In this document: positions 17,917 to 64,000 of the stretch, one piece after another
Layout of the letters: each line of letters begins with the position of its first letter
Numbering within the stretch: position 1 is the stretch's first letter
The notes under the pieces: model-generated
What the model was told of the DNA's origin: nothing
What the model saw: only the letters and a program-made list of their open reading frames with translations
Databases searched by the model: none
Translations under genes and position numbers: made by a program
DNA from: Lunularia cruciata
Taxonomy: Eukaryota; Streptophyta; Marchantiopsida; Lunulariales; Lunulariaceae
Assembly: GCA_948567375.1 (NCBI GenBank)
Contig: OX419762.1
Coordinates: 873,001 to 937,000, forward strand
Reading direction: 5' to 3'
Length of the DNA stretch: 64,000 bases

Positions 17917-17919
17917 ATC

Positions 17920-30220: not shown

Positions 30221-30419
30221 TCACCTTCACCTAGCTGACACATAGGTCCCTCTAACTCCAAATAGCCATCTACTCCAAGTATATGGTATACTCTATGGTG
30301 GGCAAAAGATCAAGAGGCTAGGTGCTATTGAGCTCCATCATTAGTTGCTTGTTTGCAACCTATACCATATAAAGAATGGACTAGCTATAAGTCAAGTACA
30401 TCTAGGACATAACCATTGT

Positions 30420-31560: not shown

Positions 31561-31599
31561 GAGTAAGCTATATGTTTGCTTTACTCCAAAATGTCCTAG

Positions 31600-36440: not shown

Positions 36441-37061
36441 ACTCCCTCTATTGGATACTACCAAGCAATGAGTGTGGTATCTAGAGGTATCAAGGTAATT
36501 GAATCTAGAGGCTCATTCTCACATTGGTCTCATGGTGGTACAAAGCCTCTACTTCAAGCTTGTTGCACCAGCTGATTTGCATGCCACTTTAATGCCTTCT
36601 CTAAACTCCACAATGGAACATCCAAGGTGGATGGAACAATCCCACTTGAACTCTAAATCCAAGTGATCTACTCTGGTATTAGAGTATCTTCTACATGGGC
36701 CTTCCCCTCCAATAAGTCACCAGGCCAAGTAACAAAACCTAGTGGTTTTATTACTTGGCTAAAATGGATGTTGCCATGGTCCCAAACTGTAGTGAACCAA
36801 GACTACCACTATTGAAGCATACTAGTAGGCAATCTACTTGTCCCTCACTTGACTGCCAACTTGGTCTATGAGGGGTTGTCTCCTCTTAATATTCAATACT
36901 AAAACCCATGGGATATAACACTACTCCCCCAACCAACACATCATATGACTCAACTACGGTTGCAATGGCTTGAGCTCTCACCACAAAGCTACTAGTTGGA
37001 TGAGCGGGTTGAATTTGAATAACAAGCTCTCCACATGTGATGTATTATGTAGAACCACCTC

Positions 37062-46223: not shown

Positions 46224-47580
46224 TGTCACGCCATTTGTAGTGTTGCATCTAGATTGCTCGGACTCTAGAGTTGCAGTGATAGTAGTTAGAGTTATTTTAG
46301 TAGTTTCTCAAAGACTACATTCCAACGGTCAGATTTTGTGTTCAAGGTACTGACTTCACGGTGGAGCCCATCGTCACTTTGCACCGTTCGCACCGTCAAG
46401 TGTGCCATCAGCAAGACCGATAGGGTTTTAGATCTAGCTCAAGTCCAAGGGGTATACTTTCAAAGTGCAGCTCCAGAGCGCTCACTTCTTTGATGTTGAG
46501 CCTTTGAGTTCTTGGCTATGGTGGATAGAGGCCGGTAAGTGTCACCTGGATTCTCTTAGCTAGAGTGGGTGTGGCTTGATTGTAATTAGTGCCCAGCTGT
46601 TGGTAGTTTATAGAGTGACAGATCAAGTATTGATCCAAGTTGAGTGGATTCAAAAGTTGTAAACAATCTGATTACATCAAAGAAGTGAAATCATGGGGGA
46701 AATTAAGTGCAAGAACTTTGAGTGTTGGTGGTATCTCCAAGCTTGGTGGATCGTTGGTAGCTCGATTGAAGTTCAATTTTTCCCTAATGTGCAGAAGTTT
46801 GTTGCTTGATGGAGATTTGGCAGTAAGGCAGACGGTGTGCGGAAGTGCTGGCCAATTTTTGAGCATAAAAGGAGCAAATTTCAAGCAATGGTTGTAATTT
46901 TGAGCTTAAAAGGTGAAGGTAAGACCAATTTGTTGTGATTTGGGCTTTGAAAGTCAAATTGAAGGTGGAGTTGGGAAGCTATTCTCATGAATTTGTGATT
47001 TGGAAAAACACGTGTTTTCAATTTGGCTCGAGTGAAGAGTTAGCAAGGGATTTGGCGGTCAGCCAACTTTAGGGTTTATGTCAGATTTGCCTAGATTTGG
47101 AGGAGTTTTGCTGTTTGGCCATATTTGGAGGAGTTTCACTAGTTTGGAGGACTTTTGCAAGTTTGAAGGACTTTTGCCAAATTTTGGAAGAGGTTCGAAG
47201 TGGCAAGAAGAAAGGCCTCATTTGGCTGAATTTTGGCACTTAGAGGCTTCAAGCTGTGGGCGATGAGAGGCTACAAAGTCCTAGAAGGGCTAGCAAGCTA
47301 GCTTGCTGGCGTGAGGCTAGCTAGTTTAGAGTAGATCTTGGTCATTGGTTGACAAAATCTGCCTTTCCTGCTAGATTGTGCACAATAGGTTTTGACCTCT
47401 AGATCTCTTGTTCCTAGATTGCTGCCCTAGCTAACTGGTCCACCCTCACTTGTTGTCCCAGTGACTGTGCCATTGTTATCTAAACACTTGTAGCTTTGGC
47501 TATGAGAGGCAGTCTGATCCCATTCTTGGTGATCTTGGTAGCTTAGGACTTAGATATGAACTTCTCTTATGTCAAATGCC
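46224..47580 (+). repeat. 5' LTR or leader of copy C
   Basis: It begins TGTCACGCCATTTG and runs about 1.36 kb to ...atgcca, two bases before the primer-like site. It is homologous to 17,920-19,623 of copy A. It lacks both the R1 segment found at the 3' ends of A, B and E and the triplication seen in A. Confidence 0.6.
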
Positions 47581-47583
47581 AAA

Positions 47584-47597
47584 TGGTAGCAGAGTCA
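47584..47597 (+). promoter_or_regulatory. Primer-binding site, tRNA-Met-like
   Basis: The sequence tggtagcagagtca is close to TGGTATCAGAGC, the initiator-tRNA-Met complement used by many plant LTR elements. It sits directly after the presumed LTR end. Confidence 0.6.
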
Positions 47598-48060
47598 GTC
47601 TCATGTTGTTTTATGAGATGGAGGGTTTTTGTCTAGATTTCTTGTGAATGGACCCCCTCTATTCTTTGCTTCTTGTTTGTGCACCACATTTGTGTGAGGT
47701 GCCTTGACTTTTGAGAGTTGGTGCTTTGGTGTGTTCTCGGTAGTGAGGCTGGGATGATAACCAGTCAGACTATCTTTGTTTCTCTCCAATGAGGCAGGAA
47801 GTGATGACCTATAGACCATGAGAGTGCATGTTGTGATGGTAGGTTATAGGTTGCCCTTTCCCCTAGTGTAGTTATCTTGGTTAGAGTTACATTAGTGGGT
47901 GGTGCTTAGTTGGTATCGGCACTTGGTGGTGTTTGCACTTGGTGGGGTACTTGAGGTTGTAGTTTGTGGTTCCGGTTTGCTGTTGCAGTTTGCGGTTGCG
48001 GTTACTTTGTCACGATGGAGTTCTTCGGGGATTCCAAAGGAGATAGCCCTGTAGTATGCA

Positions 48061-49330
48061 ATGGGTTTACTGGGAGTGGTACTCAAGTATAAGCTTGTAT
48101 CTCAAGTCTCAATGAGGAAGGAGATTGACTCTAAGTTGGAGTTTGACATAGGAGTTGATTCAGTTGAGAGTGCACTTGGTGTGTCTGCACCATTGTTGTG
48201 GGACATGGACGAGATTAATGGGGCCTCCAAAGGTCCTAGGCGTTACTCTGGTACAGTGGGTACCATTGAGTTGGATGACTTCATCCAAGAGTTTGATAGT
48301 TGGTGTGATCTGCAACAGATGCGGAACCGGACTCTGTTTACACCCTTCATGGCATGAAAGGGGTTGTTTCAGTATCTAGAGGGTCCACGGATGGATGACT
48401 ACCATGAGTTTAGGAGAGCTCATTTGGAGGAGATCAAGTTATGGAGATAGTATTGGTCTCCAAACTATGTCTCTATCACTTCAAGTTCAGTGGCCAAGAG
48501 TAGATTGGTTGTACCTACGAGTTCTAGCGCGAGTATGTGGTGGTGGAGCTAGTGGAGGTGCACTAGTTGGAGATAGTGTTACTGCGAGTGGAGGTACTAC
48601 TACAAGAGATGATGGTACCGAGGTTTAACCCCATGGTGGGGTTCTTCTTGTGTTTGAGGCAGAACTACCAGGGAGTGTGGATTGACAAGCTGAGGAGCTT
48701 GCAAGAGTTCCAATGAAAGGCTAGAGAGAGCCTATGCAAGGCATAAACTTGCATGAGGCGGCTGATCAATTTCACTCAAAGAGTTACTAAGGCCTTTGTA
48801 GTCCAGTTTTGGTATGGAATACTGGACAAGGAGTTGCGACGTAGAGTTTGTGATGCTACATTGTTATAGGCTACTTTGCCTACTTTGGCAGTGGTCTTTG
48901 GTTTGGCTGAGTGTATTGAGCTCAACATGGTGGAGGAGAGAGTGGTGACATCTGGATTTGGTAGGGAGACCTCATCCACAATTGTTACTTCTTCTAGAGT
49001 GCAATAGAGTGCACCACGTCCAGTTGGTTTTTGAGGACAGGGTGGACAGCCTAGATCCTATGGCGCAAATGGAGGGCCTAGTGGAGTTAGACCCTTACAT
49101 TCATTTTTGGGTCAGAAATAGCTAGTGAGTAGTGGTGTTGCTTGTTGGACTTGTGGTGGACCTCACCATCAGAGAGAGTGTATTTAGGGCAGTGGACTTG
49201 ATACCTTGGATGTATCATAGCCAACACGGAGGCAGTGTGAACATTGCTACAGATTTGGTCATTGTAGTGACCAATGTTTTGACCTACACCCAAAGTTACA
49301 GAGTGGTAGGGCTACTATGGTAGGTAGTAA
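48061..49330 (+). pseudogene. MT-gypsy C gag
   Basis: The capsid-like part starts near 48,200 with segments such as TIELDDFIQEFDSWCDLQQM and, in other frames, LDKELRRRVCDATLL. Two Cys/His zinc knuckles follow: 49,143-49,181 (CWTCGGPHHQREC) and 49,236-49,277 (CEHCYRFGHCSDQC, a canonical CX2CX4HX4C). These bind RNA during packaging. A stop separates the two knuckles, and at least two frameshifts lie upstream. Confidence 0.7.
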
Positions 49331-49427
49331 AGGAGTTCCATGTCATGGAGGATGAGGTGGTAGAGGTGGTGATAGAGGATCTACACCTAGTAGGGGTGCA
49401 ATACCTGCTATTACTTTTGATACAACT

Positions 49428-50243
49428 ATGGCTTCTTGGATTGAGCAGTTGAAACAGAGATTGGCTAGTATGGCCATTGCTCAAAGGAGATCAGATTTGG
49501 GTGCGGAGGCTTCCACCTCATATGCTGGTGATAAAGATGCTTTGGACTTCATGTGCGGAGTAGCACAGGTAGATGCATCTATAGCAGTGACTAGGAGTGC
49601 AATACGTGCTCGAGAGCCTAGAGGAGCATCACTGGAGTTGGACCTATAGAGAGGAGAAGTTGGGAGACATGCCAGACTTCCCCAGTCTTTCATGCTTTTT
49701 GAGGCATTACAGACAATATCCATGGTTCTTAGACGTCCCAGTGTAGGTGTTGATGGAGTGCATGATAGACTACTTGCTAGTCAGCCACCTACTACTACAC
49801 AGTCTGAGTCTAGCATGATGTTGGGGGCGGTTCAGCTGATTATGTGGCATCCCTTGTTTTGGGCCAATGATATGTTTACATTGGGAGTTGACCCAGCCCC
49901 AGTGTTCTGGTTGGCTGCTACATTGTGTGAGAGTAGGGATGATGCGGTTCCTACTACTAGAGTAGAGGTGATTGGTAGTGGAGCTGACTTGGTTGAGGAG
50001 CATGAGATCCATTCAGTGACCAATGGTTTAGGGCAGGCAACAACGGCTAGACTGGAGGAGTTGCCAGCTAGACCGGCCTTTGAGAGAGCGCGGTTCACAC
50101 CTGGTGTTGTCCTATTGGATAACCAAAGGGGGATTTTCCGTTCGGTGGGACCTTTAGGGAAGGTTTATATACCACAAAGAGTCTTGTTAGACTCTGGTGC
50201 GCAACCCCTTATGTTGGAGAAAGCTGAAGTTGTTGGTCTGGAG
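49428..50243 (+). pseudogene. MT-gypsy C protease and preceding linker
   Basis: The frame 49,428-49,649 and, after one stop, 49,692-50,243 make a well-conserved linker followed by the retropepsin loop VLLDSGAQPLMLEKAEVVGL (active-site Asp codon at 50,190-50,192). The protease would cleave the polyprotein. Only the N-terminal half of the domain is present; homology ends at the junction with copy E at 50,243. The bases after it are the reverse complement of R1, so the last 25 or so residues of the open frame are not protease. Confidence 0.7.
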
Positions 50244-50360
50244 TGTCGTGCGTATATACATCGCTACACAACATACATCGCTGTCAACATCATACACTAT
50301 AAAAGCACAACTCACACATAAGTCATACATAGACTCTAAAGTGCCACAATCGCCCCCCTA
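50244..50360 (-). repeat. R1 terminal repeat and polypurine tract of copy E
   Basis: On minus, AGGGGGGCGAT (50,359-50,349) is a polypurine-like tract. It is followed directly by R1, TGTGGCACTTTAGAGTC to GCACGACA (50,348-50,244), 105 bp with TG...CA ends. This fits a short LTR or the start of a longer one. No U3-like 430-bp block follows, unlike copies A and B; copy C begins instead, in inverse orientation. Confidence 0.6.
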
Positions 50361-50517
50361 GCTGGCGGTTAGGTCCCTCTAACTCCAGATAGCCATCTAC
50401 TCTAAGTATATGGTATACCCTCTAATGGGCAAAAATCAGGAGGCCGGGTGCTATAGAGCCCCATCGTTAGTCGCTTGTCTGCAATCTATACCATATAAAG
50501 AATGAACTAGCTATAGG

Positions 50518-50994
50518 TCAAGTACATCTAGGACATAACCACTGTCCCTGAGGAACCACCGTGAGGGGAGGAGTCATACATGCCATATGCCATCCTCTCG
50601 AACAGCTATGACACACTAACATAGTAGCAGCTCCACCAGAAGAGCCACATAACATACACCTCAAGCCTGCACGTACAAGTGCCAAGCTTGGGTCCATAGT
50701 ACCATCAATGTTTGGAAGGTGGAATGGTGCACAATTGCGCACATGATCCTTCCAAACAACACCATCACGTCCTTCTAACACAAGGACTCCAGATGGCAAA
50801 ACCTCGTGCACTCTCAAGATAGTGCGGCCTGTAGAAACATCAAGTGTCGTCGGTGCTGTCTGCTGTAGATATACATAGTCGCATGGATGAAATCGACGGA
50901 TCAAGGGTCTATAACCTCCTCCTCGAATGGTAGCATAGCGTAAAGTATCTCTATGCTGAGCAATCGCCAAGTTCTCAAAGGCCATCGGCATCAC
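50518..50994 (-). CDS. MT-gypsy E integrase C-terminal region with PHD finger
   Basis: This is the 158-residue end of the polyprotein, starting after a Trp-to-stop change (TGG to TGA). Residues 1-110 form the integrase C-terminal domain (GRTILRVHEVLPSGVLVLEG). Residues 113-157 form a complete PHD finger with all eight zinc ligands in C4HC3 order: C113, C116, C128, C131, H136, C139, C154 and C157, the Trp152 two residues before C154, and the typical PPLTxxPxGxW stretch. PHD fingers generally bind histone H3 tails, so it may steer integration to particular chromatin; that is inference. In most plant Ty3/gypsy elements with a reader, a chromodomain occupies this position. The polyprotein ends two codons after the last Cys. 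Confidence 0.85.
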   Translation of the reverse strand: MMPMAFENLAIAQHRDTLRYATIRGGGYRPLIRRFHPCDYVYLQQTAPTTLDVSTGRTILRVHEVLPSGVLVLEGRDGVVWKDHVRNCAPFHLPNIDGTMDPSLALVRAGLRCMLCGSSGGAATMLVCHSCSRGWHMACMTPPLTVVPQGQWLCPRCT

Positions 50995-51589
50995 TCTTCA
51001 AAAAATCTCTGCCCGTTGAGAACATGCGCTCATCCATACATCGGGGTCATCCAAGTCCAAAACTACAGTAGCATCTTGACAAATGGCTGTAGGTAAATCT
51101 GGATCTCGTCCATAGAGTAGAAAGTATGGAGAGAAGGATGCTAAGGAGGCTTGCCGGTGTCGTCGGGAAAAAAGCCCACGTGTACCCTTGAGGCTTTTGG
51201 TGTGATAAATTTTCTTTTCTCTTTTATTTGTTGTAAGAAACAGGGATTTATGATAATATGTCTCGGGTGTGGTTTTGCTACTTGGTTTTGGGAGAAAGTG
51301 AGGAGACAGAGAAGGGCTGAGGGTTTTCACAAAATGCCAAAAGATTTTGAGAGGGTTTGGCAGAGGATTTCGAGAGGAGTGGCAGAAATTTTCAGGAGAA
51401 GAAAGGAGTAGGGTTTTTTTTTTTGAAAAGGGACAGAGGAGTGTCGAGAGAGCAAGGGGTTTTTTTTTTTTTTTTCAAGAATGACAGGAGGAGTTTGGGG
51501 GCAGAGGACAGAAGGTGGGCAGGAAGGAAGGGAATCGAAAGGGATTGGAATGATCATGAAGGAGTAGTCAGGAAGGCTTTTTAGGGACA

Positions 51590-53140
51590 GAGGAAATTTC
51601 GAGTTGGACAGGAGAGGGTTTGGCAGGAGGAGAAATTCTCGAGAGGCTGGAGGGTTTGGACAGAGGAACACACACACAGAGGAAATTTCGAGTTGGACAG
51701 GAGAGGGTTTGGCAGGAGGAGAAATTCTCGAGAAGCTAGAGGGTTTGGACAGAGGAACACACACAGGAGAGAAATTTTCGAGTTGGACAAGAGAGGGTTT
51801 GGCAGGAGGAGAAATTCTCGAGAAGCTGGAGGGTTTGGACAGAGGAACACACACAGGAGAGAAATTTTCGAGTTGGACAGGAGAGGGTTTGGCAGGAGGA
51901 GAAATTCTCGAGAAGCTGGAGGGTTTGGACAGAGGAACACACACAGGAGAGAAAATTTCAAGTTGGACAGGAGAGGGTTTGGCAAGAGGAGAAATTCTCG
52001 AGAGGCTGGAGGGTTTGGACAGAGGAACACACACACAGAGGAAATTTCGAGTTGGACAGGAGAGGGTTTGGCAGGAGGAGAAATTCTCGAGAGGCTGGAG
52101 GGTTTGGACAGAGGAACACACACACAGAGGAAATTTCGAGTTGGACAGGAGAGGGTTTGGCAGGAGGAGAAATTCTCGAGAAGCTAGAGGGTTTGGACAG
52201 AGGAACACACACAGGAGAGAAATTTTCGAGTTGGACAAGAGAGGGTTTGGCAGGAGGAGAAATTCTCGAGAAGCTGGAGGGTTTGGACAGAGGAACACAC
52301 ACAGGAGAGAAATTTTCGAGTTGGACAGGAGAGGGTTTGGCAGGAGGAGAAATTCTCGAGAAGCTGGAGGGTTTGGACAGAGGAACACACACAGGAGAGA
52401 AAATTTCAAGTTGGACAGGAGAGGGTTTGGCAAGAGGAGAAATTCTTGAGAAGCTGGAGGGTTTGGACAGAGGAACACACACACAGAGGAAATTTCGAGT
52501 TGGACAGGAGAGGGTTTGGCAGGAGGAGAAATTCTCAAGAAGCTAGAGGGTTTGGACAGAGGAACACACACAGGAGAGAAATTTTCGAGTTGGACAGGAG
52601 AGGGTTTGGCAGGAGGAGAAATTCTCGAGAAGCTGGAGGGTTTGGACAGAGGAACACACATAGGAGAGAAATTTTCGAGTTGGACAGGAGGGGGTTTGGC
52701 AGGAGGAGAAATTCTCGAGAAGTTGGAGGGTTTGGACAGAGGAACACACACACAGAGGAAATTTCGAGTTGGACAGGAGAGGGTTTGGCAGGAGGAGAAA
52801 TTCTCAAGAAGCTGGAGGGTTTGGACAGAGGAACACACACAGGAGAGAAATTTTCGAGTTGGACAGGAGAGGGTTTGGCAGGAGGAGAAATTCTCGAGAA
52901 GCTGGAGGGTTTGGACAGAGGAACACACATAGGAGAGAAATTTTCGAGTTGGACAGGAGGGGGTTTGGCAGGAGGAGAAATTCTCGAGAAGCTGGAGGGT
53001 TTGGACAGAGGAACACACACAGGAGAGAAATTTTCGAGTTGGACAGGAGGGGGTTTGGCAGGAGGAGAAATTCTCGAGAAGCTGGAGGGTTTGGACAGAG
53101 GAACACACACAGAGGAGAGGAATTTTCGAGTTGGATAGGA
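51590..53140 (+). repeat. 89/90-bp minisatellite in F 5' LTR
   Basis: About 17 units begin near gagttggaca (51,601, 51,690, 51,780, 51,870, 51,960, 52,049 and so on). Units are 89 or 90 bp depending on whether acacacacag or acacaggaga precedes the junction. A higher-order period of 448 bp is visible in the first half. The units lack stops in several frames on both strands, which produces long artefactual open frames (up to 635 and 709 residues). Confidence 0.9.
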
Positions 53141-53144
53141 AGGG

Positions 53145-53560
53145 GCTTGAAAGTGCAGGGCTGTGCTTGGACCAGGAGAGCAATTTCGAAATGTGAGAGT
53201 GCAGGCTGTGTTTGGACCAGGAGAGCAATTTCAAAATGTGAGAGTGCAGGCTGTGTTTGGACCAGGAGAGGAATTTTGAAATGTGAGAGTGCAGGGCTGT
53301 GCTTGGACCAGGAGAGCAATTTCAAAATGTGAGAGTGCAGGCTGTGTTTGGACCAGGAGAGGAATTCTGAAATGTGAGAGTGCAGGGCTGTGTTTGGACC
53401 AGGAGAGGAATTCTGAAATGTGAGAGTGCAGGGCTGTGCTTGGACCAGGAGAGGAATTCTGAAATGTGAGAGTGCAGGGCTGTGCTTGGACCAAGAGAGA
53501 AATTTTGAAATGTGAGAGTGCAAGGCTGTGTTTGGACAGGATAGGAATTTTCGAAATGTG
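53145..53560 (+). repeat. 46-bp tandem array in F 5' LTR
   Basis: The unit contains gtgcagggctgtgcttggac and gaaatgtgaga and is repeated about eight to nine times. The 3' LTR has exactly one more unit (46 bp longer between the same landmarks). Confidence 0.9.
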
Positions 53561-53970
53561 AAATGAGTCTTGGAAGCAGATTTGTGTTATGAATTGTGAC
53601 TAGAGTTGAGGAAACTCCATTCTAGGATCTCTCAGTCTGGTCCAGGTGAAAAGCATAATTAAATGATCTGAGTGCCGGATTTATGTTCAGTTAGATCACT
53701 CAGTTGTTGTTTATTTTATTTTATCAAAGGGCCACCGGACCTAGGTCTATGAACTGCCAGATCCCGAACCATAGCTTGAACCTGACGAGAAAATAGGATA
53801 TGAGACCAAGCAGAGGTAGAAACCATAACACCAACCTCGCATGACAAGATTGGTTTTACGAAAGTTAAGGATAAAACAAAACCTTCAGGGTGAGTCAACC
53901 TCAGAAAACTAAGCACAAGCAGCCATGTGCTCGGCGCACTCTCAAGACCGAACGTTCCCCACGACATAAG

Positions 53971-53988
53971 TGGCGACCATGCTGGGGA
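53971..53988 (+). promoter_or_regulatory. Primer-binding site of element F
   Basis: The sequence tggcgaccatgctgggga begins with TGG, as needed to pair with a tRNA CCA end, and lies four bases after the LTR. It differs from the tRNA-Met-like site of MT-gypsy. I cannot assign the tRNA with certainty. Confidence 0.7.
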
Positions 53989-54021
53989 ATCTCGAGGCTT
54001 GTGCTTAGACGTTACGACTAG

Positions 54022-55350
54022 TTGGAGTTGGGGAAGGGAACAGGGACAGATTGGACTGATCTAAGTGGAGAGGAGGTGAGTTGTGCTGAGGTAGAGATGG
54101 GCCCAGAGGCTTCATCTGCAGCTATGACAAGGGAACAGGAGATCTCACTGATTGTCATGGCAACCATGAGAGCCATGAAGGATCAGGATGAGGAAAGAGA
54201 CAAGGTGAAGGTGCAGTCTTTGCAAGTCACAAAATGTTTGCGTGCTGTGGTGGACCAGCGGGGGGAATTTGATGGTAAGGACGTGACTAAGTACCTGAAG
54301 GTCTACTGGAGAGAGGTTAAGCTTCATGGTCTTGATGAGAAGGTTGCCATTGCAAGGTTCCCTAAGCTGGTGGAGCTTGAAATCAAGAAGGTGGTTGAGG
54401 GCTTGGTGAGAGGGGCAGAGACATGGGAGGAGTTCTCCCAGATGATGAAGGAGGAATTCTTGCTGCAGGATGCAGATCGGGTCACCCAGGCCATGTTCTT
54501 GGATTGGGTGAATGATAGGAGTAAAAACTTGGGGCCTCAAGATCTCCTAAGAGAGTTTAACAAGAGACTGGGGCATCTATCAGCTTGTGAAGCTGAGGCC
54601 ATTAGACTACAGAGGTCTAACTACTTTCTGTGAGCTGCAGATAGTCGTTTGCGGGATGAGTTGGAGTATGCACTTGATTTGCTCCAACCTGATCGGTTGG
54701 GAACGGTAGAGTGGGGAAAGATTGAGGAGGCGGTTGTCTGGGTAAGCCGCAAGCGGAGGCAGAGAGAGCTGGATGAAGAAGCAATAGCCAAAGCGCCTAT
54801 TTGGAGTAGCATGGTTGGGTCCGGGAGAGAGAAGATGGAACAGCAAGTGAGCGAGGTGGCTAAGGAAGGAGCTGTTGACAAGATATCACGACTAATGGAG
54901 GGGCTGAAAGCTCTGACCACCAAGGTCGACCAGCTGCAGAGTGGGAGTAGTACTGCAAGAACAATCGGAGAGAAGAGACAGCTCTATGGGTGCATGTGGT
55001 GTGATAGTAAAAGTCATGCCAAGAGAGATTGCCATGAGCTATCAGAAGCGCTGCATAAGCAGCTGGTGAAATTTGTGGGAGAGCCCGGAATGAAGAAGGT
55101 TGCCTTCTTTGACACTGGGGAGCCAATACCGCTGAACTGGAACAGAGGAGGCATGAAGGCACTGCTGGAGAGACACTTGGGCACACGTGAAGTAGGTATG
55201 GCAATTGCTACTTTTGGGCCTAGTGTGTATAGTGCAGTGGGTGAGATGAAACAAAGTACAGATTTAGATGAGATGGAAAAGAAGAAGAACAAATATCAAG
55301 GAGGAGAAACAAAGAGGCAGGGACAAGATGGACCTCTAGTGGGAGATGCT
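54022..55350 (+). CDS. Element F Gag
   Basis: The frame opens at 54,022 and continues past a single TGA (54,631-54,633) in the same frame. The capsid-like part (residues ~70-200) contains FDGKDVTKYLKVYWREVKLH and FPKLVELEIKKVVEGLVRGA. After the stop, a zinc knuckle CMWCDSKSHAKRDC (54,991-55,032, CX2CX4HX4C) is followed by KVAFFDTGEPIPLNWNRGGM, a segment I associate with gag proteins of large plant LTR elements. The same frame runs on into the captured segments. The single TGA can be explained by a CGA-to-TGA change; readthrough is an alternative. Confidence 0.75.
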
Positions 55351-55389
55351 CAGGTTTCTCAAGTTCACCATGACCCGCAATTTCAAAGA

Positions 55390-56100
55390 TTGCCCAAGAA
55401 AGAAAGCAAGGTTGGTATAAATTCTTGGTACGCTCATAAGTTTCATGATACAGGGTTTGCTGTAAAGGAGTCGGGGGTGGAATGGCCACCAAAAGCAAAG
55501 GTAGGGAAAGCTCTTACCATTGACAAGAAGAGTGTGCAACATTTTATTGGAGGAATAGAGGCAGATAAATTTGAGAAGAGATTGAAGAAGAAAACTGAAG
55601 AACATGGTGCTGATTTTATCTTGCACGACTGTCTAAGGGGAGAATGGAGGTTTCAAGGGAATCACTTCAGCAGAAACAGGTTGGATGACTCTGACAAGGA
55701 AGAAACTCCTCAACAAGGGTCTAGCAAGGAGCTAGTTCTTTTAGGAAAAGATGTGACGGAAGGTGTGGAGGAGAATTCTGAAGATCTCTCACCAAAAGGT
55801 CCTGACATTGGTAAGGAAGCTGTGGAAGTTGACAAAGATGAGGAAAGGTATGACCAGATTCATAGTGTTGCTTCTCAAGCAGCATTGCTTCACTTGTTAC
55901 CTTCTGAACTGAGACAAGATCCACTTAAAATGCATCAAATGAGGGATTTGTTTTTCCCTTTGGGTGAAGAAGAAGAAGGATCAGGACTTTATGAAGATGC
56001 AGAGGAGGAAGAAGAGTCATGCTCGTTGTCATCATCTTCAGATAGTGACAGTGATGCCAAAAAGATAGCAAAGGAAGCAATGCAAGGACCTCAAGGTACT
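55390..56100 (+). CDS. Element F unassigned acidic segment
   Basis: This is part of the same frame between Gag and the ESF1-like piece. It contains GINSWYAHKFHDTGFAVKES, then a basic patch, then a strongly acidic Ser/Asp/Glu-rich stretch (EEEEGSGLYEDAEEEEESCS). I do not recognise the first part. The acidic stretch could belong to the ESF1-like protein, whose family has long acidic low-complexity regions, or to a third captured gene. Confidence 0.4.
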
Positions 56101-56125
56101 TACAGCCACAACGACAACAAAATTG

Positions 56126-56692
56126 ATGATGAAGTTGATCCTAAGAAGCTGCAGGAGTATGAGAAAGCTTTGAGGCAGAAGTTCAATCTTGACCAACTGA
56201 ATGAACAAGACTTCAAAGGCTATGTGGCATCAAGTTCTGACTCTGAGCAAGAAGGCGGTAGAGTCAAAGAGGATGGGAATAGCAATATTGAGAAGGTTAT
56301 TGGTAAGGAGAAAGATAAGTTGCAAGCAAAGTATCTGTTCTTGTTGTCTAAGACAGGAGGATTGGACGAGGAAAAGGTGGTGGGCAAGAAATCAGAGAAA
56401 GGAAACATTGAGAGAAAGTTTCACACAGGACTAGGTGAGCTTAGTGAGGAACTTATGGAGAAGATGAGGAAGACCAAGAGTGGTGAAATGGTATTGGAAG
56501 CCTACCTGCGCAAGAGAAGAAGAAGAAGAAGGAAGAGGCAGCCTTCCAAAAGAAGGAAGAGAAGAAGAGGAAGGCAGAGCTTGAGTTGCTGCTCATGGAT
56601 GCCGATATGGTGCGAAATGGCCAGACCGAATCAAAGCCACAAAAGGACTTGTCAAAGAAGGAAGAACAGAAGAAAAGGCAAATTGGTTGATG
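56126..56692 (+). CDS. Captured ESF1-like segment (pre-rRNA processing factor C-terminus)
   Basis: The frame reads LRQKFNLDQLNEQDFKGYVA followed by an acidic SSSDSE run, then FHTGLGELSEELMEKMRKTK and MVLEAYLRKRR. As I know the family, this order (KRKFNxDQLxExxxKxxLAS, acidic gap, FxxGLxxLSxxxxEK, TVWEAYLxKR) is that of the C-terminal half of ESF1/NUC153 proteins, nucleolar factors in 18S rRNA maturation. Around 56,515 the frame turns Arg-rich and unlike the family. The +1 frame instead continues plausibly (FQKKEEKKRKAELELLLMDA), so an indel has moved the reading frame. The absence of introns suggests capture from mRNA. Confidence 0.6.
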
Positions 56693-56729
56693 TACAAGAA
56701 GATGTTTTGGAGGAAAAGGAAATGTTGGC

Positions 56730-57345
56730 TGAAGGGACAAGTACATTCAAGCTATTGGATCAGAAGAGAGTACAGCTTGCCAACAAAAGGAAGGAGTTTT
56801 TGTCAACAATTAGTCTACTCATGAACGATATCAACACTCTCAAAGGGTCAGATCAGGAGCTAGTAATACTTGCTGAAGAGAAGATGCAGCTTTTGGATAA
56901 AACCACTGCTTTGACCGATATCGGTGCACTGAAGCAATTGAGTGAAGGGCACGCACAGTTGTACAAATTGCAGAAAGAAGAGTTGGGGCTAGAAATGGAA
57001 CAAAGAATGGTGAGCATTGAACTTCAGCTCCAGGAGTCCAAGAACAAATATTGTGCTTTGGGGACCAGTTCAAAGGCAGCTGCCAAGATTTTGCAAGAGG
57101 AGCAGGGGTCCTTCAAGAACAGCCTGCAAAGTTTTCTCAAGAAGCTAAAGAATCTCCAAGTTGCATCACGAAATAGTAGACTTTTGGTTGTGGGGTTCCA
57201 TAATGCATGGCATGACTCTGTTGCAGATGTTTGTATTAGAATCCAAGAGCCTACCAAAGCAGCAACAAGAGGATATCAGAAGTTACTTGTGAGAAACCAT
57301 AAGCTCTACAACAAAGTGCAAGATTTGAAAGAGAACAAGAGAGAT
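56730..57345 (+). CDS. Captured kinesin-14-like stalk/neck segment
   Basis: The last 230 residues of the frame are coiled-coil-rich and end with YQKLLVRNHKLYNKVQDLKE. In plant kinesin-14 motors the sequence just before the motor domain reads YHKVLxENRxLYNxVQDLKG and is followed by NIRVYCRVRP. Here the match stops at the neck, and the motor domain is absent (LKENKRDTFQ instead). So only the stalk and neck were captured, or the motor was lost. The family assignment rests on this neck motif and the coiled coil before it. The frame closes at 57,432. Confidence 0.55.
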
Positions 57346-57484
57346 ACGTTCCAACACAATATTGGAGTTGCAGAAGGAGGTAACAGAAAAGAAGCAACTT
57401 GGAAGAAGTACCTGATCATGTTTTGGAGGTAGGTTTGCACTAGATTTCTAGAGGCTTGATGGTGCAGACCGGAGGCTGCACAGG

Positions 57485-57499
57485 ATTGGTGGGGGTGAA
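57485..57499 (+). promoter_or_regulatory. Polypurine tract of element F
   Basis: The sequence attggtgggggtgaa lies immediately before the 3' LTR and is purine-rich, as expected for the primer of plus-strand synthesis. Confidence 0.65.
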
Positions 57500-60355
57500 T
57501 GTTGTCGGGAGAAAAGCCCACGTGTACCCTTGAGGCTTTTGGTGTGATAAATTTTCTTTTCTCTTTTATTTGTTGTAAGAAACAGGGATTTATGATAATA
57601 TGTCTCGGGTGTGGTTTTGCTACTTGGTTTTGGGAGAAAGTGAGGAGACAGAGAAGGGCTGAGGGTTTTCACAAAATGCCAAAAGATTTTGAGAGGGTTT
57701 GGCAGAGGATTTCGAGAGGAGTGGCAGAAATTTTCAGGAGAAGAAAGGAGTAGGGTTTTTTTTTTTGAAAAGGGACAGAGGAGTGTCGAGAGAGCAAGGG
57801 GTTTTTTTTTTTTTTTTTCAAGAATGACAGGAGGAGTTTGGGGGCAGAGGACAGAAGGTGGGCAGGAAGGAAGGGAATCGAAAGGGATTGGAATGATCAT
57901 GAAGGAGTAGTCAGGAAGGCTTTTTAGGGACAGAGGAAATTTCGAGTTGGACAGGAGAGGGTTTGGCAGGAGGAGAAATTCTCGAGAGGCTGGAGGGTTT
58001 GGACAGAGGAACACACACACAGAGGAAATTTCGAGTTGGACAAGAGAGGGTTTGGCAGGAGGAGAAATTCTCGAGAAGCTAGAGGGTTTGGACAGAGGAA
58101 CACACACAGGAGAGAAATTTTCGAGTTGGACAAGAGAGGGTTTGGCAGGAGGAGAAATTCTCGAGAAGCTGGAGGGTTTGGACAGAGGAACACACACAGG
58201 AGAGAAATTTTCGAGTTGGACAGGAGAGGGTTTGGCAGGAGGAGAAATTCTCGAGAAGCTGGAGGGTTTGGACAGAGGAACACACACAGGAGAGAAAATT
58301 TCAAGTTGGACAGGAGAGGGTTTGGCAAGAGGAGAAATTCTCGAGAGGCTGGAGGGTTTGGACAGAGGAACACACACACAGAGGAAATTTCGAGTTGGAC
58401 AGGAGAGGGTTTGGCAGGAGGAGAAATTCTCGAGAGGCTGGAGGGTTTGGACAGAGGAACACACACACAGAGGAAATTTCGAGTTGGACAAGAGAGGGTT
58501 TGGCAGGAGGAGAAATTCTCGAGAAGCTAGAGGGTTTGGACAGAGGAACACACACAGGAGAGAAATTTTCGAGTTGGACAAGAGAGGGTTTGGCAGGAGG
58601 AGAAATTCTCGAGAAGCTGGAGGGTTTGGACAGAGGAACACACACAGGAGAGAAATTTTTGAGTTGGACAGGAGAGGGTTTGGCAGGAGGAGAAATTCTC
58701 GAGAAGCTGGAGGGTTTGGACAGAGGAACACACACAGGAGAGAAAATTTCAAGTTGGACAGGAGAGGGTTTGGCAAGAGGAGAAATTCTCGAGAGGCTGG
58801 AGGGTTTGGACAGAGGAACACACACACAGAGGAAATTTTGAGTTGGACAGGAGAGGGTTTGGCAGGAGGAGAAATTCTCAAGAAGCTGGAGGGTTTGGAC
58901 AGAGGAACACACACAGGAGAGAAATTTTTGAGTTGGACAGGAGAGGGTTTGGCAGGAGGAGAAATTCTCGAGAAGCTGGAGGGTTTGGACAGAGGAACAC
59001 ACATAGGAGAGAAATTTTCGAGTTGGACAGGAGGGGGTTTGGCAGGAGGAGAAATTCTCGAGAAGCTGGAGGGTTTGGACAGAGGAACACACACACAGAG
59101 GAAATTTCGAGTTGGACAGGAGAGGGTTTGGCAGGAGGAGAAATTCTCAAGAAGCTGGAGGGTTTGGACAGAGGAACACACACAGGAGAGAAATTTTCGA
59201 GTTGGACAGGAGAGGGTTTGGCAGGAGGAGAAATTCTCGAGAAGCTGGAGGGTTTGGACAGAGGAACACACATAGGAGAGAAATTTTCGAGTTGGACAGG
59301 AGGGGGTTTGGCAGGAGGAGAAATTCTCGAGAAGCTGGAGGGTTTGGACAGAGGAACACACACAGGAGAGAAATTTTTGAGTTGGACAGGAGGGGGTTTG
59401 GCAGGAGGAGAAATTCTTGAGAAGCTGGAGGGTTTGGACAGAGGAACACACACAGAGGAGAGGAATTTTCGAGTTGGATAGGAAGGGGCTTGAAAGTGCA
59501 GGGCTGTGCTTGGACCAGGAGAGCAATTTCGAAATGTGAGAGTGCAGGCTGTGTTTGGACCAGGAGAGCAATTTCAAAATGTGAGAGTGCAGGGCTGTGC
59601 TTGGACCAGGAGAGCAATTTCAAAATGTGAGAGTGCAGGCTGTGTTTGGACCAGGAGAGGAATTTTGAAATGTGAGAGTGCAGGGCTGTGCTTGGACCAG
59701 GAGAGCAATTTCAAAATGTGAGAGTGCAGGCTGTGTTTGGACCAGGAGAGGAATTCTGAAATGTGAGAGTGCAGGGCTGTGTTTGGACCAGGAGAGGAAT
59801 TCTGAAATGTGAGAGTGCAGGGCTGTGCTTGGACCAGGAGAGGAATTCTGAAATGTGAGAGTGCAGGGCTGTGCTTGGACCAAGAGAGAAATTTTGAAAT
59901 GTGAGAGTGCAAGGCTGTGTTTGGACAGGATAGGAATTTTCGAAATGTGAAATGAGTCTTGGAAGCAGATTTGTGTTATGAATTGTGACTAGAGTTGAGG
60001 AAACTCCATTCTAGGATCTCTCAGTCTGGTCCAGGTGAAAAGCATAATTAAATGATCTGAGTGCCGGATTTATGTTCAGTTAGATCACTCAGTTGTTGTT
60101 TATTTTATTTTATCAAAGGGCCACCGGACCTAGGTCTATGAACTGCCAGATCCCGAACCATAGCTTGAACCTGACGAGAAAATAGGATATGAGACCAAGC
60201 AGAGGTAGAAACCATAACACCAACCTCGCATGACAAGATTGGTTTTACGAAAGTTAAGGATAAAACAAAACCTTCAGGGTGAGTCAACCTCAGAAAACTA
60301 AGCACAAGCAGCCATGTGCTCGGCGCACTCTCAAGACCGAACGTTCCCCACGACA
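57500..60355 (+). repeat. 3' LTR of element F
   Basis: 2,856 bp, starting TGTTGTCGGGA and ending ccccacgaca. It carries the same minisatellite (57,944-59,471, the same 1,527-bp span between first and last landmark as the 5' LTR) and a 46-bp array with one additional unit. A few substitutions and a one-base poly-T difference separate the two LTRs. Confidence 0.9.
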
Positions 60356-61483
60356 CCGGCTGAACCGATAGCCCATGGCCAACCAAGGTAATTGGAGATC
60401 CCAATCTCCCAAGTGGCCTCTCTGCAAACCATACTTTCGCAATCCTCTCTTCACCGTCTGAACCACTCTCTCCGCTAAGCCATTTGCCTCAGGGTGATCT
60501 CAGGATGTAGTATGATGATCAATCAAAGCCTTGTCACACAAGACCTAAAACTCTCCCAAGAACTCTGTACCCTGATCAGTCAAAACCTCAGCTGGTGCAC
60601 CAAAATGACTAAGAACTTGATCCAGGAACGAGTAAGCTGTCCCTTCACTAGACTTGTCAGGAAGTGCCACCAACTCAATCCACTTGGAGAAGTGCTCCAC
60701 CATCACCAAAACATACCGATGATGTCTCACAATCAGCGGTAAAGGTTTGGCAAAGTCCAAACTCCAACGGTAACCCAATCCCATGATAGGTAATGGGTGT
60801 AACTGTGGCATAGGAGCATTGAATGATGCTCTAACTCGGTCACAAACCACACATCTGGCAACAAACTGCTGTACCTCAGTCTGCATACCGCGCCACCAAT
60901 AATGACTCTGGAGTAAGCTATATGTACGCTTTACTCCAAAATGTCCTAGCTCCTCATGAGCATGACGGACCAACTGTGGTCTCTGTGATGGAAGTGGTAC
61001 TACTCGCACTCTACCATCCTCCCATACACGCAAAAGGTGTCTACCCTCCAATCTGAACCGTCTGGCTTGCTGAAGAACACGGTCTCTCTCCTTGGCCCCA
61101 ACTGTGCCACCCACAACACCAGTGCAAAGATAGTCCATCACTAAGACATCATCATGAATGTCTCGCTGAACTGTACCAATATCTTCACTCTCTGGATCTG
61201 TGACCTCAATAACTCCTCCTGTATGCGCTGAGAGAGATACCACCAAAGTCTCTACAAATATACACAGAAAGGCCGATGCATGCCAACCTGGCACCATCTC
61301 CTCATCTGTCTCACCATGCCAACGTGCTCCGGTCTGATCCTGCTGGCTGGGACATGGGTTTCTACTCAACCCATCTGCATCACGGTTCACCACTCCAGGT
61401 CTGTGAACAACCGTGAAATCATACTCCTGTAAAATCAGAGCCCATCGTGCAAGCTTCCCTGAAAGCTTGTCGGACTCCATCAA
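60356..61483 (-). CDS. MT-gypsy E RNase H end, linker, integrase zinc domain and core
   Basis: The open part 60,545-61,483 has 312 residues. Residues 12-41 end RNase H (HRPGVVNRDADGLSRNP). Residues ~42-165 form a family-specific linker without a recognised domain. Residues 174-214 form the HHCC zinc domain (HEELGHFGVKRTYSLLQSHY, then CVVC). The integrase core has Asp243 (SLDFAKP) and Asp303 (LTDQGTEFLGEF). A CAG-to-TAG stop follows at 60,545. Downstream to 60,356 the frame continues with the catalytic Glu (NGLAERVVQTVKRG) and is then cut by element F. Confidence 0.85.
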
Positions 61484-61540
61484 CCACTTCAGCGGCTGAT
61501 GATCAGTGATGAGAGTGAAGGGGTTACCAAATAGGTAACA

Positions 61541-62830
61541 TCAGAAATGTGCTACTGCCCAAACTGCTGCCAAGCACTCTCCCTCATATGAACTATACTT
61601 CGCCTCCGCTGAATTGTTGGAGCGACTAGCATAGGCCACCACAAACTCCTTCTCCTCATCATCATGTTGGGTGAGCACCGCTCCAAGCCCCAACATACTC
61701 CAATCAATGTGAACCTGAAATGGTCGTCCCCTGATCGGTCTCCTCAAAATAGGAGCAGATGTCAACCTCTCCTTGAGCTCTACAAAAGCTCTCTCCTGCT
61801 CATCTCCCCAACACCACTCATGTGTAAGCTTGGTCAGCTTTGTCAAGGCCTTGGCAATGGCGCTAAATCCTCTAACATAGCGGCAATAGAAGTTCGCCAA
61901 CCCAAGGAATGCTTGCACTCTGCTCACATCCGTAGGCCAAGGAATACGTGCAATAGCCTCCACCTTGGTCTGCTGGACACCAAGTCCTCTGGGGTAGATA
62001 GTGTGACCCAAATACTCAACCTGCTCGTGGAAGAACCTACACTTCCCAGGATGTAGTTTGAGTCCATGAGATCTCAACCTCTCAAACACCTCCAACAACT
62101 GTCTCTCATGCTCCTCCACAGTAGTGCTATAAACCAAAATGTCATCAATATAGCACCAAGCAAAATCCAATCCAGCTAGGATCCTATCCATGATCCTCTG
62201 GAACTCAGCAGGAGCGTTCTTTAACCCAAATGGTAAGAACCTCCACTGATATAACACATCCTTGCCGTGAGGATCAATAGCCCAAAATGCTGTCTTGGAC
62301 TTATCCTCCTCCCTGATCGGCAACTGATGATATCCCGCTCGAAGATCCAAAGTATTGAAGACCTTTGCATGCCCAATCGCATCAAAAATCTCCTCCGGTG
62401 TAGGCATGGCATACCGATCAGCCCTGGTCTATCGGTTGATAGGACGGTAATCTCCACACATCCGCCTATTTGTATAGTTGCCATGCATATCCTTCTTGGC
62501 TGGCATCACTGTCGCTGATGCATACTCTCCATGTGAAATCTCCACCAAACCAACCTCAAAAAGGTCACTACTTCGGCTCTGAATCAATGTCCTCTCCATA
62601 TCACTATATCAATAAGGACGTCAGAAAACAGGTGTGTCGCTAGTCAGCTCAATCCGTATACCAGGTCCCTTCAGAGCACCCAAATCCTTCATACTGAAGG
62701 CAAAACAACTTGTGTGACTCCTCAAGAACCTCCAAACCCTCCGTCTTTCCTCTCCAGTAAGCTTGGGTCCAAGATCTGGCTCCCAAGTATCCTCTGTAAC
62801 TGTAGTAGGAGTGGAAGACGTACTGACTGG
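61541..62830 (-). CDS. MT-gypsy E reverse transcriptase and RNase H
   Basis: The open 288-residue part (61,541-62,407) contains the palm motifs FNTLDLRAGYHQLPI, LPFGLKNAPAEFQ and YIDDILVYS (residues 86-89 are the catalytic YIDD, near 62,150), the thumb motif FLGLANFYCRYVRGFS, and RNase H starting FQVHIDWSMLGLGAVLTQ. The N-terminal fingers (RRMCGDYRPINR) precede it in the same frame after one CAG-to-TAG stop. Two more CGA-to-TGA stops lie near 62,610-62,630. Motifs and order are Ty3/gypsy. Conservation is high compared with copies A and B. Confidence 0.85.
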
Positions 62831-62833
62831 CTG

Positions 62834-63150
62834 CTACACTGGGCCCTTGGGAGCAATAGTGTCATGCTCCCGACCACTAGAGGTCCCAACCTCCGTGTGA
62901 AAAACTCCCTCCACTCTGGCTGCAAGCTCCACACGTCCTCTAGCTACATCCCATGTGGACCAAGGGTGTAATCCAAGTAGCCCACGCTCACCTGGATGGA
63001 CTCCAAGTAGACCACTCTCCCTAGTAGCTACTGGATGTGTCCCAAGAATACCATGTCCACTCGGTCCATCGCCCCCAGCATGTGCCTGAATCGTCTCGAT
63101 AGGCACAAGGCTCACAAGTGTCCGAGTGGTGATGCCTATCAAGCGCATCC
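62834..63150 (-). CDS. MT-gypsy E linker between methyltransferase and reverse transcriptase
   Basis: Gly/Pro/Arg-rich translation with short repeats of GLLGxHP. It is in frame with both neighbours, conserved in copies A and B, and matches no domain I know. It may be a flexible linker holding a protease cleavage site. Confidence 0.5.
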
Positions 63151-64000
63151 TACGCTGCTCTACCAAACCAAGGCTCACAATCCAGGTCAAACAGTTCAGG
63201 TCCATAGCCTAACCTAACACCTGACGCCTGGATGCCTCTAACACTACTAGAACAGCGGTAATACCGGTGCAAAAACCCATCGCCCGCTCTCTCTCATCAG
63301 CATTGGGCTCCACCAACTGCTGTAACTGTGAGTCCCAAACAAGTCCAGGTCCTCCCTCTCAAAAAGCATGAGAGCCCGGGAAACTCATGAGTGTGGGAAA
63401 TGCAGCTCTAGGCTGTCCAACTAGGTTCACCACTGCCATAGGTGACCTATCAGCCACTACCACTGTCTGAGACTGACGTCCAGCATCCAAGATATCATCA
63501 ACAAGAATGTGGTCTAGTCGTTGAATCCCATCATAACTACGCTGTAGAACCTCTCTGGGTAAAAGGTTCGTCCACCAAAGACGAAGACGATGAGCCCGTG
63601 ATCCCACTCTGGCTGCATCTAACAATACAGCAGGTCCCATCCAAGAATGGACCTGATGTGTACTCGCCACCACTCTAGTGCGAGAATCACCCAACAAAGG
63701 AACGTTCTCCAAAAGGTAAGCTGGAGAAACAGACTGATGAACCTGGAGATGTCATAATATCCGTAACATCTCCCAAAACACACCAGAACAAGGATCCTGA
63801 AGACCCAAACCATGGCCCGCATGTGTATGTCCCTGACATGGCCATCCAGAAATCACCAAGTGAACAGGCCCATGTCTCTCTAGGTCATGCGCCCCCAGTA
63901 AGGAAATGTCTCCTGGTAAGGCCTTTTGGTAACCTCTAACTGCTGACATCGGTAATAACTCCGGATACCGATAGGCCAAGTGTGCCACATGATGTAGAGA
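63150..64000 (-). CDS. MT-gypsy E DNMT3-like cytosine-5 DNA methyltransferase (partial)
   Basis: The product would transfer methyl groups to cytosine C5 in DNA. Visible motifs in order: HLVISGWPCQGHTHAGHGLG (motif IV with the Pro-Cys nucleophile, about 63,815-63,875), FWEMLRIL, YLLENVPLLGDS (motif VI, ENV), VLLDAARVGSRAHRLRLWWT followed by Asn-Leu (motif VIII, like the DNMT3 pattern DAxxxSxxHRxRxFWxNLP), a target-recognition-like stretch, then ERERAMGFCTGIT and LG(stop)AMDLNCLTWIV (motifs IX/X). Motif I lies outside the window, but copy A shows it (LELFGGIG). Three in-frame stops (near 63,752, 63,360 and 63,207) interrupt it, each explainable by CGA-to-TGA or CAG-to-TAG. It is in frame with the reverse transcriptase. 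DNMT3 is the closest match from memory; CMT or DRM are less likely from motif order and spacing. Confidence 0.85.

What the first reader, a model, noticed from the sequence alone, without database searches (positions are those of the whole stretch)
63150..64000. A Ty3/gypsy retrotransposon that encodes a DNMT3-like cytosine DNA methyltransferase
In three copies (A 11,740-14,640, B 35,560-36,440, E 63,150-64,000), motifs I, IV, VI, VIII and IX/X of a C5 methyltransferase lie between protease and reverse transcriptase. In E the domain shares the reading frame of the reverse transcriptase. The Pro-Cys nucleophile is intact in E. From memory, retroelement-borne cytosine methyltransferases have been described in dinoflagellates and a charophyte alga (de Mendoza et al. 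2018). I do not know of a well-described land-plant case. An element that methylates DNA could modify its own copies or the host target.
Basis: partly seen in the sequence, partly recalled or inferred. Interest (0 to 1): 0.93.

Follow-up and report, generated by a model that had tools for sequence, protein, structure and literature searches.

The report
Liverwort retrotransposon carrying a DNA methyltransferase
A jumping gene present in thousands of copies in a genome that looks like a liverwort's carries its own DNA-methylating enzyme and a histone-reading module, so a genomic parasite may write the mark that plants normally use to silence parasites.

Summary
The window (C12 of a 566-Mb genome; the host's own DRM gene is closest to the liverwort Riccia) carries Ty3/gypsy copies with a DNMT3-type C5 methyltransferase between protease and reverse transcriptase. 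Profile, fold and motif order point to DNMT3. The catalytic Pro-Cys is kept in 35 of 35 copies aligned. Genome-wide, a methyltransferase 34-mer occurs 4,928 times and a reverse-transcriptase 34-mer 5,112 times, so the domain looks like a constant part of the family. Copy E itself is dead: three stops in the domain, nested insertions, and motif I outside the window. (1) A UAG separates Gag-protease-methyltransferase from RT-RNaseH-integrase in 37 of 37 junctions, followed in 33 by CAR YYA, the tobamovirus readthrough signal. (2) The integrase ends in a PHD finger. (3) The ends are DIRS-like split repeats (A-coding-B-A-B), yet 3 of 4 insertions examined carry 4-bp target duplications. (4) Relatives occur in Marchantia, Sphagnum, green algae and many unnamed records. 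The one published gypsy parallel found is KnitGypsy-Dnmt3 of a charophyte (2018); I found no printed land-plant case. Self-methylation of cDNA is the likeliest role, but inferred. Within-genome purifying selection on the domain is only moderate.

The parts
50244..64000 (-). Copy E, nested in copy C; runs on to C12:941840 (window-equivalent about 68840). Decayed and split by a 9.2-kb insert
   Evidence: tblastn; repeat A at L009:6391-6841 and repeat B in window; 4-bp target duplication GGAG on both sides
63131..64000 (-). DNMT3-type methyltransferase domain of E (motifs IV, VI, VIII, IX/X; motif I lies beyond the window)
63836..63841 (-). Pro-Cys catalytic dipeptide of motif IV, intact
   Evidence: P and C in 35 of 35 copies aligned
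62834..62836 (-). UAG between the methyltransferase frame and the RT frame, followed by CAG CCA
60356..62620 (-). RT, RNase H, integrase zinc-binding and core domains of E (several stops)
50524..50658 (-). PHD finger at the C-terminus of the integrase frame of E
   Evidence: PF00628 7.6e-11; PHD fingers of CHD4, KMT2D and KDM5 among the PDB hits
50244..50350 (-). Repeat B, the 3' end of E (here without A2-B2)
50240..50243 (.). Target-site duplication GGAG of E inside copy C
   Evidence: read from the strings printed
46224..50243 (+). Copy C, 5' part (repeat A, gag, protease); continues beyond E in L009 with methyltransferase, TAG and RT
29562..37110 (-). Copy B, old and decayed; methyltransferase about 35466-36493, junction TAG 35169-35171, repeats B-A-B 29562-30220; its 5' end was not found
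8340..19623 (-). Copy A, old and decayed; methyltransferase 11721-14692 interrupted by an insert; repeats B-A-B 8340-8997, repeat A 19209-19623

Best explanation
An abundant Ty3/gypsy retrotransposon of what is most likely a complex-thalloid liverwort, carrying a DNMT3-type de novo methyltransferase. Its main translation product is Gag-protease-methyltransferase. Some ribosomes read through a conserved UAG in the tobamovirus-type context and add RT-RNase H-integrase-PHD. The methyltransferase is thus made at Gag stoichiometry, packaged in the particles, and most likely methylates the newly made double-stranded cDNA (probably at CG) before or during integration, while the PHD finger tethers the integrase to histone H3 tails. 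Shown: domains, order, catalytic residues, UAG and its context, PHD, split repeats, 4-bp duplications, abundance. Inferred: readthrough, packaging, enzymatic activity, cDNA as substrate, PHD tethering, host identity.
For: DNMT3 assignment by profile, by fold (AlphaFold model of the relative P0001; the 50 matches listed are all chains of DNMT3 entries, TM up to 0.79 on the DNMT3A domain) and by unpermuted motif order. The MT 34-mer is about as frequent as the RT 34-mer (4,928 vs 5,112). Pro-Cys, Glu-Asn-Val and the motif X Met-Gly-Phe unchanged in 35 of 35 copies, the reference copy included. MT is the best conserved of the ORF1 regions compared: 72% to Marchantia P0002 against 61-63% for gag and protease, and 50-53% to unnamed P0012, P0013, P0015, P0017-P0019 against 24-29% and 39-44%. 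MT and RT trees both separate the two layouts. UAG in 37 of 37 distinct junctions, CAR YYA in 33 of 37 (the search pattern itself held the CCA, up to 6 mismatches allowed); of the 100 listed of 3,386 genome matches, 97 have TAG, 2 TAA, 1 TTG (hand count; the listed ones are zero-mismatch matches on C1). CAR YYA is stated to be essential for TMV readthrough (PMC2754532 passages). No special downstream structure in the one sequence folded (z +0.93), as expected of a sequence-type signal. PHD finger at the integrase end and in 93 of the 108 relatives with an integrase match. A1/A2 repeat divergence 0.9%, 2.0% and 11% in three copies.
Against: No activity, transcript or methylome was measured. Within this genome pooled pN/pS of MT is 0.44 against a neutral expectation of about 0.71 under the observed mutation spectrum, weaker than RT (0.31 against 0.65-0.70); stop density in MT (4.7 per 1000 codons) is near the neutral 5.5-5.7 and higher than in RT (2.4, neutral 4.7-5.1). 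46 of the 117 best-scoring MT copies contain stops (hand count). C-to-T differences from L010 are CG 6.9%, CHG 5.8%, CHH 1.2%, as host CG/CHG methylation would give. Some relatives (P0048, P0142, P0143) have MT and RT in one frame without a stop. In de Mendoza 2018 the isolated KnitGypsy methyltransferase showed no activity in yeast, which the authors call inconclusive.
Confidence: 0.6

Rival explanations
1. The methyltransferase acts on host chromatin at or near the insertion site: the PHD finger brings the integrase complex to histone tails and the enzyme seeds methylation of the target, shielding the host from the insertion and the element from removal.
For: Reader (PHD) and writer (MT) would sit in one readthrough polyprotein, and a PHD match is found in 93 of the 108 relatives with an integrase match. 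PHD pN/pS is the lowest of the regions measured (0.20; only 10 copies).
Against: MT is mainly made without the PHD, as part of the Gag-length product, if the UAG terminates most ribosomes. No target-site or methylome data.
Confidence: 0.2
2. The domain is kept for a non-catalytic or RNA role (binding nucleic acid in the particle, or methylating element RNA) rather than for DNA methylation.
For: The position next to Gag would suit nucleic-acid binding. A crude motif scan found Glu-Cys instead of Pro-Cys in motif IV in 35 of 144 relatives and no clear motif in 32.
Against: Pro-Cys and Glu-Asn-Val are unchanged in 35 of 35 copies here, which a scaffold role would not require.
Confidence: 0.12
3. 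The domain is a passenger now decaying in this genome, retained mainly because recent masters still carried it, and the UAG is a nonsense mutation fixed in a recent master.
For: Stop density in MT is near the neutral expectation; much of the difference between copies looks like post-insertion decay.
Against: Conservation across Marchantia, Sphagnum and unnamed relatives; proteins of ten distant relatives also end 79-162 residues after MT (P0012, P0013, P0015, P0017-P0019, P0098, P0106, P0107, P0134); UAG also in the older copies B and C.
Confidence: 0.08

Closest known systems
KnitGypsy-Dnmt3 of Klebsormidium nitens (de Mendoza et al. 2018, PMC5890265)
   Same: Ty3/gypsy domain composition; DNMT3-type, non-rearranged methyltransferase; DIRS-like repeat layout; catalytic residues kept
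   Different: There described as lying in the Pol ORF of a charophyte, in fewer copies than the dinoflagellate elements; here in a liverwort-like host, in thousands of copies, in the Gag-protease frame, separated from RT by a UAG in readthrough context, with a PHD finger on the integrase. The words PHD, Marchantia and liverwort do not occur in that paper's main text
SymbioDIRS-Dnmt3 and SymbioLINE-Dnmt of dinoflagellates (same paper)
   Same: Retroelement-borne C5 methyltransferase in many copies; split repeats in the DIRS type
   Different: Other retroelement classes (tyrosine recombinase, LINE) in dinoflagellates; described as hundreds of DNMTs
DNMT3A/3B, plant DNMT3 and DRM
   Same: Catalytic fold and motifs; DNMT3 motif order
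   Different: Only 19-23% identity in the listed fold matches; no PWWP or ADD domain found; the host's own DNMT3-like exon and DRM, used as outgroup, lie far away
Chromoviruses (chromodomain Ty3/gypsy; recalled)
   Same: Integrase with a C-terminal histone-reader module
   Different: PHD finger instead of chromodomain
Tobamovirus replicase UAG readthrough (PMC2754532)
   Same: UAG followed by CAR YYA
   Different: Here between Gag-protease-methyltransferase and RT in a retroelement; readthrough not measured

Membership tests
Ty3/gypsy LTR retrotransposons | Protease, RT, RNase H, integrase (rve) in this order | tested here: met
   Pfam of L010 ORF2 and window pieces; protease motif LLDSGA in ORF1 read from the sequence (no Pfam protease family passed)
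Ty3/gypsy LTR retrotransposons | Short target-site duplication and TG...CA ends | tested here: met
   4-bp duplication in 3 of 4 insertions examined (GAGG, ACTC, GGAG), read from printed strings; none seen in the oldest
Ty3/gypsy LTR retrotransposons | Identical LTRs at both ends | tested here: not met
   Split repeats A-coding-B-A-B in L010, L012, L016 and by the repeat scan in L013, L015, L017, L020 and, without A1 in view, L018; A-coding-B in E and apparently L019. The gypsy assignment rests on the domains
DIRS retrotransposons | Split direct repeats | tested here: met
DIRS retrotransposons | Tyrosine recombinase; no target-site duplication | tested here: not met
   rve integrase found, no phage-integrase family in ORF1 or ORF2 at E 0.1; 4-bp duplications. 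Not filed as DIRS
DNMT3 methyltransferases | Best match to DNMT3 with motifs in order I, IV, VI, VIII, X (not permuted as in DRM) | tested here: met
   fold of the relative P0001
DNMT3 methyltransferases | De novo CG methylation activity | not testable with these tools
   needs expression of the domain
DNMT3 methyltransferases (animal type) | PWWP and ADD domains | tested here: not met
   Pfam found neither in ORF1 at E 0.1; a PHD finger lies in ORF2 instead
KnitGypsy-Dnmt3 | DIRS-like repeat layout with gypsy domains and a DNMT3-type domain | tested here: met
   paper parts 1-4 of 7 read
KnitGypsy-Dnmt3 | Methyltransferase within the Pol ORF | tested here: inconclusive
   Here it is in the Gag-protease frame and would join RT only by readthrough; the ORF map of the K. 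nitens element (a figure) was not available
KnitGypsy-Dnmt3 | Direct sequence kinship with the K. nitens element | tested here: inconclusive
   No Klebsormidium-named protein among the 144 hits of two protein searches; length limits, scoring caps and missing names may hide it
Tobamovirus-type (type I) UAG readthrough | UAG followed by CAR YYA | tested here: met
   33 of 37 distinct junctions; rule from PMC2754532 passages
Tobamovirus-type (type I) UAG readthrough | Measured readthrough | not testable with these tools
   needs a reporter assay

The most novel reading that the evidence does not exclude
The element carries a complete reader-writer epigenetic kit: a Gag-stoichiometric, particle-packaged de novo cytosine methyltransferase and an integrase-borne PHD finger. 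It marks its own cDNA before integration and thereby tunes its own silencing, and it expanded to about 5,000 copies in a land-plant genome. Such gypsy elements are an old lineage running through green algae and bryophytes rather than a charophyte oddity.
Probability: 0.35. Interest if true: 0.9.

Novelty: new variant of a known kind. Interest (0 to 1): 0.74.

Why it matters
DNA methylation silences transposons, so a transposon that encodes a DNMT3-type enzyme and keeps it across bryophytes and algae is a puzzle that the 2018 paper left open. Relatives at up to 72% identity in the domain lie in annotated Marchantia polymorpha records, so the question becomes testable in a tractable land plant. 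[quoted passage not shown] the named Marchantia and Sphagnum records and this genome show that this does not extend to bryophytes. The UAG context gives a concrete hypothesis for how Gag and Pol levels are set, and the two positions of the domain (before RT, or between RNase H and integrase) show that it is a durable part of these elements.

Tried and rejected
Chance match: rejected. Bacterial-type methyltransferase or DRM: rejected as best class. Frame shared with RT without a break: rejected, the TAG is constant. The shared TGA at one codon (13 of 35 copies; CGA in 20, CAA in 2) as an inherited defective subfamily: not supported; it is scattered on the copy tree (9 changes, shuffled mean 10.7, as low in 88 of 500 shuffles), fitting a CpG hot spot; that tree has no strongly supported branch. 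Structure-type readthrough: not supported (z +0.93, one sequence). CpG depletion as proof of self-methylation: not usable, host methylation gives the same pattern. Exact genome-wide counts of TAG against other codons at the junction: asked for, not answered. Gag 34-mer count: not answered. DNA of distant relatives to test their stop context: the viral collection gave one weak match (33% identity) and none; the genome collection none. Rooting with true DNMT3 genes: not done; the third protein search listed 120 of 984 hits, those with names being DRM-type or unnamed methyltransferases. The structure model is of the relative P0001: mean pLDDT 53.5 overall, much of the domain 70-93 with a low stretch at 766-806.

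Print searches for a land-plant or bryophyte case; split repeats in gypsy; PHD on integrase; readthrough in plant gypsy, (20 of 817 listed). Only openly licensed PMC papers are covered. Papers seen: PMC5890265 parts 1-4 of 7 plus passages; PMC6338049, PMC12344493, PMC6317226, PMC2754532 and PMC9985172 passages only; all others as search listings.

Full report
WHERE. The window is C12:873001-937000 of an unnamed 566-Mb genome in 74 contigs; eight contigs of 60 Mb or more seen sum to about 558 Mb. Its own DRM gene (L002; PDB best DRM2, 1.6e-103) is closest to Riccia sorocarpa (63% over 92%, another protein 74% over 73%), then Calypogeia 55%, Sphagnum 54%, Ceratodon 51%. The host is therefore most likely a complex-thalloid liverwort. 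Lunularia cruciata is a candidate by inference only: a 2023 paper gives it an assembly of 580 Mb and bursts of Ty3/gypsy elements, and does not hold the word methyltransferase (PMC9985172, passages). The host also has a DNMT3-like and a DNMT1/CMT-like (that its best chains are maize ZMET2 is recalled) gene piece.

ANATOMY. One natural copy (L010) has ORF1 of 1428 codons: gag, two zinc knuckles, aspartic protease, then the methyltransferase (about residues 985-1330). A TAG follows, and the same frame goes on (in L010 with one further stop before RT) through RT, RNase H, integrase zinc-binding and core domains to a PHD finger at the last residues. In copies such as L012 and L016 the frame after the TAG runs on for 1037 codons without that stop. 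Motifs: I LLELFGGISTGL, IV GWPCQGH, VI LLENV, VIII AHRLRLWW, X ERERAMGF. In 35 aligned copies, the reference included, Pro-Cys, Glu-Asn-Val and the motif X Met-Gly-Phe are unchanged. Motif names, and the reading of gag, knuckles and protease by eye, are from general knowledge; Pfam gave only a sub-threshold gag match in ORF1 besides PF00145.

CLASS OF ENZYME. phmmer of ORF1 against PDB gives DNMT3A 8.5e-9 first. A profile of 17 relatives gives DNMT3A/B/C chains at 5e-17 to 1.7e-13, then DRM 2.6e-7, HaeIII 3e-6, HhaI 3e-5, tRNA-type DNMT2 3e-5 (60 of 106 hits shown). Foldseek of a model of the relative P0001 returns chains of DNMT3 entries in all 50 listed matches (157 at E 0.001 or better), TM up to 0.79 on the target.

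COPY NUMBER. 34-mers with up to 3 mismatches: MT 4,928, RT 5,112, MT-RT junction 3,386, reversed controls 0. The near-equal numbers speak against abundant MT-less derivatives; co-occurrence at each place was not checked genome-wide. Of the 117 MT copies scored (of 13,823 first-look candidates), identity to L010 is 96-100%; 71 have no stop in the domain and 46 do (hand count).

THE UAG. In the sequence held after, 38 junctions were found by a pattern that left the three codons around the stop free but held the following CCA and flanks (up to 6 mismatches); 37 are distinct. All have TAG; CAR YYA follows in 33. Of 3,386 genome-wide matches, the 100 listed (zero mismatches, all on C1) have 97 TAG, 2 TAA, 1 TTG (hand count), while the codon before it varies (GTG, GTA, ATG, ATA and others). 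The older copies B and C also have TAG. CAR YYA after UAG is given as essential for TMV readthrough (PMC2754532). The 129 nt after the stop in L010 do not fold better than shuffles. Among 144 relatives, 24 are protease-MT proteins without an RT match. Ten unnamed ones (P0012, P0013, P0015, P0017, P0018, P0019, P0098, P0106, P0107, P0134) end 79-162 residues after MT, and six of the Marchantia group (P0001, P0002, P0003, P0005, P0007, P0010) 69-73 residues after it. Whether these too use UAG cannot be seen from protein records. Three relatives (P0048, P0142, P0143) have MT and RT in one frame, and a Closterium product (P0045) and some Marchantia gene models also join them, so the stop is not universal or is spliced over in annotation.

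ENDS. Three copies with flanks show A1 (about 450) - coding - B1 (about 100-110) - A2 - B2; the repeat scan shows the same B-A-B end in L013, L015, L016, L017, L018 and L020. E itself is A1-coding-B, inserted in copy C with a 4-bp duplication GGAG, and L019 looks alike. Ends are TGTCACGCC...CGACA with 4-bp duplications in 3 of 4 cases, read from the printed strings. Both forms could come from circles carrying two or one repeat pair, opened at the B/A junction by the integrase. That is inference. De Mendoza et al. reported a DIRS-like repeat layout for KnitGypsy-Dnmt3.

RELATIVES. Two protein searches gave 48 hits (among the 8000 candidates scored) and 112 hits (144 distinct). Two layouts exist: protease-MT-RT (this genome, bryophytes, some unnamed) and RT-RNase H-MT-integrase-PHD (75 proteins with all five domains). 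The MT tree (138 rows) and the RT-RNase H tree (89 rows, of which only 6 of the first layout) both separate the layouts. In the RT tree the second layout is one side of a branch (99). In the MT tree the first layout needs 3 changes, one second-layout row (P0043) falls beside it, and there are long branches. Both are quick trees with weak outgroups. In the MT tree this genome, P0001, Marchantia and Sphagnum form a group of 14 rows with support 100.

SELECTION. Across species MT is the best conserved of the ORF1 regions compared. Within the genome pooled pN/pS is gag 0.28, protease 0.34, MT 0.44, tail 0.78, linker 0.81, RT 0.31, RNase H 0.28, integrase 0.53, PHD 0.20 (10 copies for gag, RNase H, integrase, PHD). 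Under the observed mutation spectrum the neutral value is about 0.6-0.7, not 1, so the within-genome signal for MT is moderate and that for integrase slight. The copies were picked by PF00145 score or long frames and are not a random sample. C-to-T differences relative to L010 are CG 6.9%, CHG 5.8%, CHH 1.2%, T-to-C 1.8% (L010 is not the ancestor), which suggests CG and CHG methylation of the copies by whatever enzyme.

AGE. A1/A2 divergence is 0.9%, 2.0% and 11% in three copies.

VERDICT. The finding is real, and more interesting than stated in four respects: the UAG, the PHD finger, the split ends and the abundance. It is a new variant of a known kind because DNMT3-bearing gypsy elements were published in 2018. 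Identity of the parts is about 0.97 certain; readthrough about 0.75; DNA-methylating activity about 0.75; cDNA as main substrate about 0.55. These are my estimates.

Noticed in passing
window 51166-60355: A 9.2-kb insert in copy E: two long arrays of 90-nt tandem repeats about 6.34 kb apart, closely alike, flank frames of 203 and 932 codons without an RT match; looks like a non-autonomous retroelement with tandem-repeat ends.
   Followed up: partly
P0024, P0027 (unnamed relatives), after the PHD finger: The C-terminal stretch resembles a second SAM-dependent methyltransferase (DPWAGTGTI ... TSPWF in P0027), not recognised by Pfam; possibly an amino-methyltransferase. Read by eye only.
   Followed up: no
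relatives with layout RT-RNase H-MT-integrase, and Closterium P0045: A crude scan found Glu-Cys in 35 of 144 relatives, and Asp-Cys or Ser-Cys in a few, instead of Pro-Cys in motif IV of the methyltransferase.
   Followed up: no
window 50240-50350 and L009:6391-6844: Copy E is inserted in opposite orientation into copy C with a 4-bp duplication, showing an integrated form without the A2-B2 end.
   Followed up: yes
tree: Elements of this genome, Marchantia and Sphagnum are unusually close for hosts that split in the Palaeozoic (dating recalled); slow evolution or horizontal transfer could be tested.
   Followed up: no
Marchantia gene models (for example P0002, P0004, P0006): Public records name these element proteins hypothetical proteins; P0004 and P0006 join MT and RT while lacking the residues around the junction, as if spliced over it (inferred from the protein alone).
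   Followed up: no
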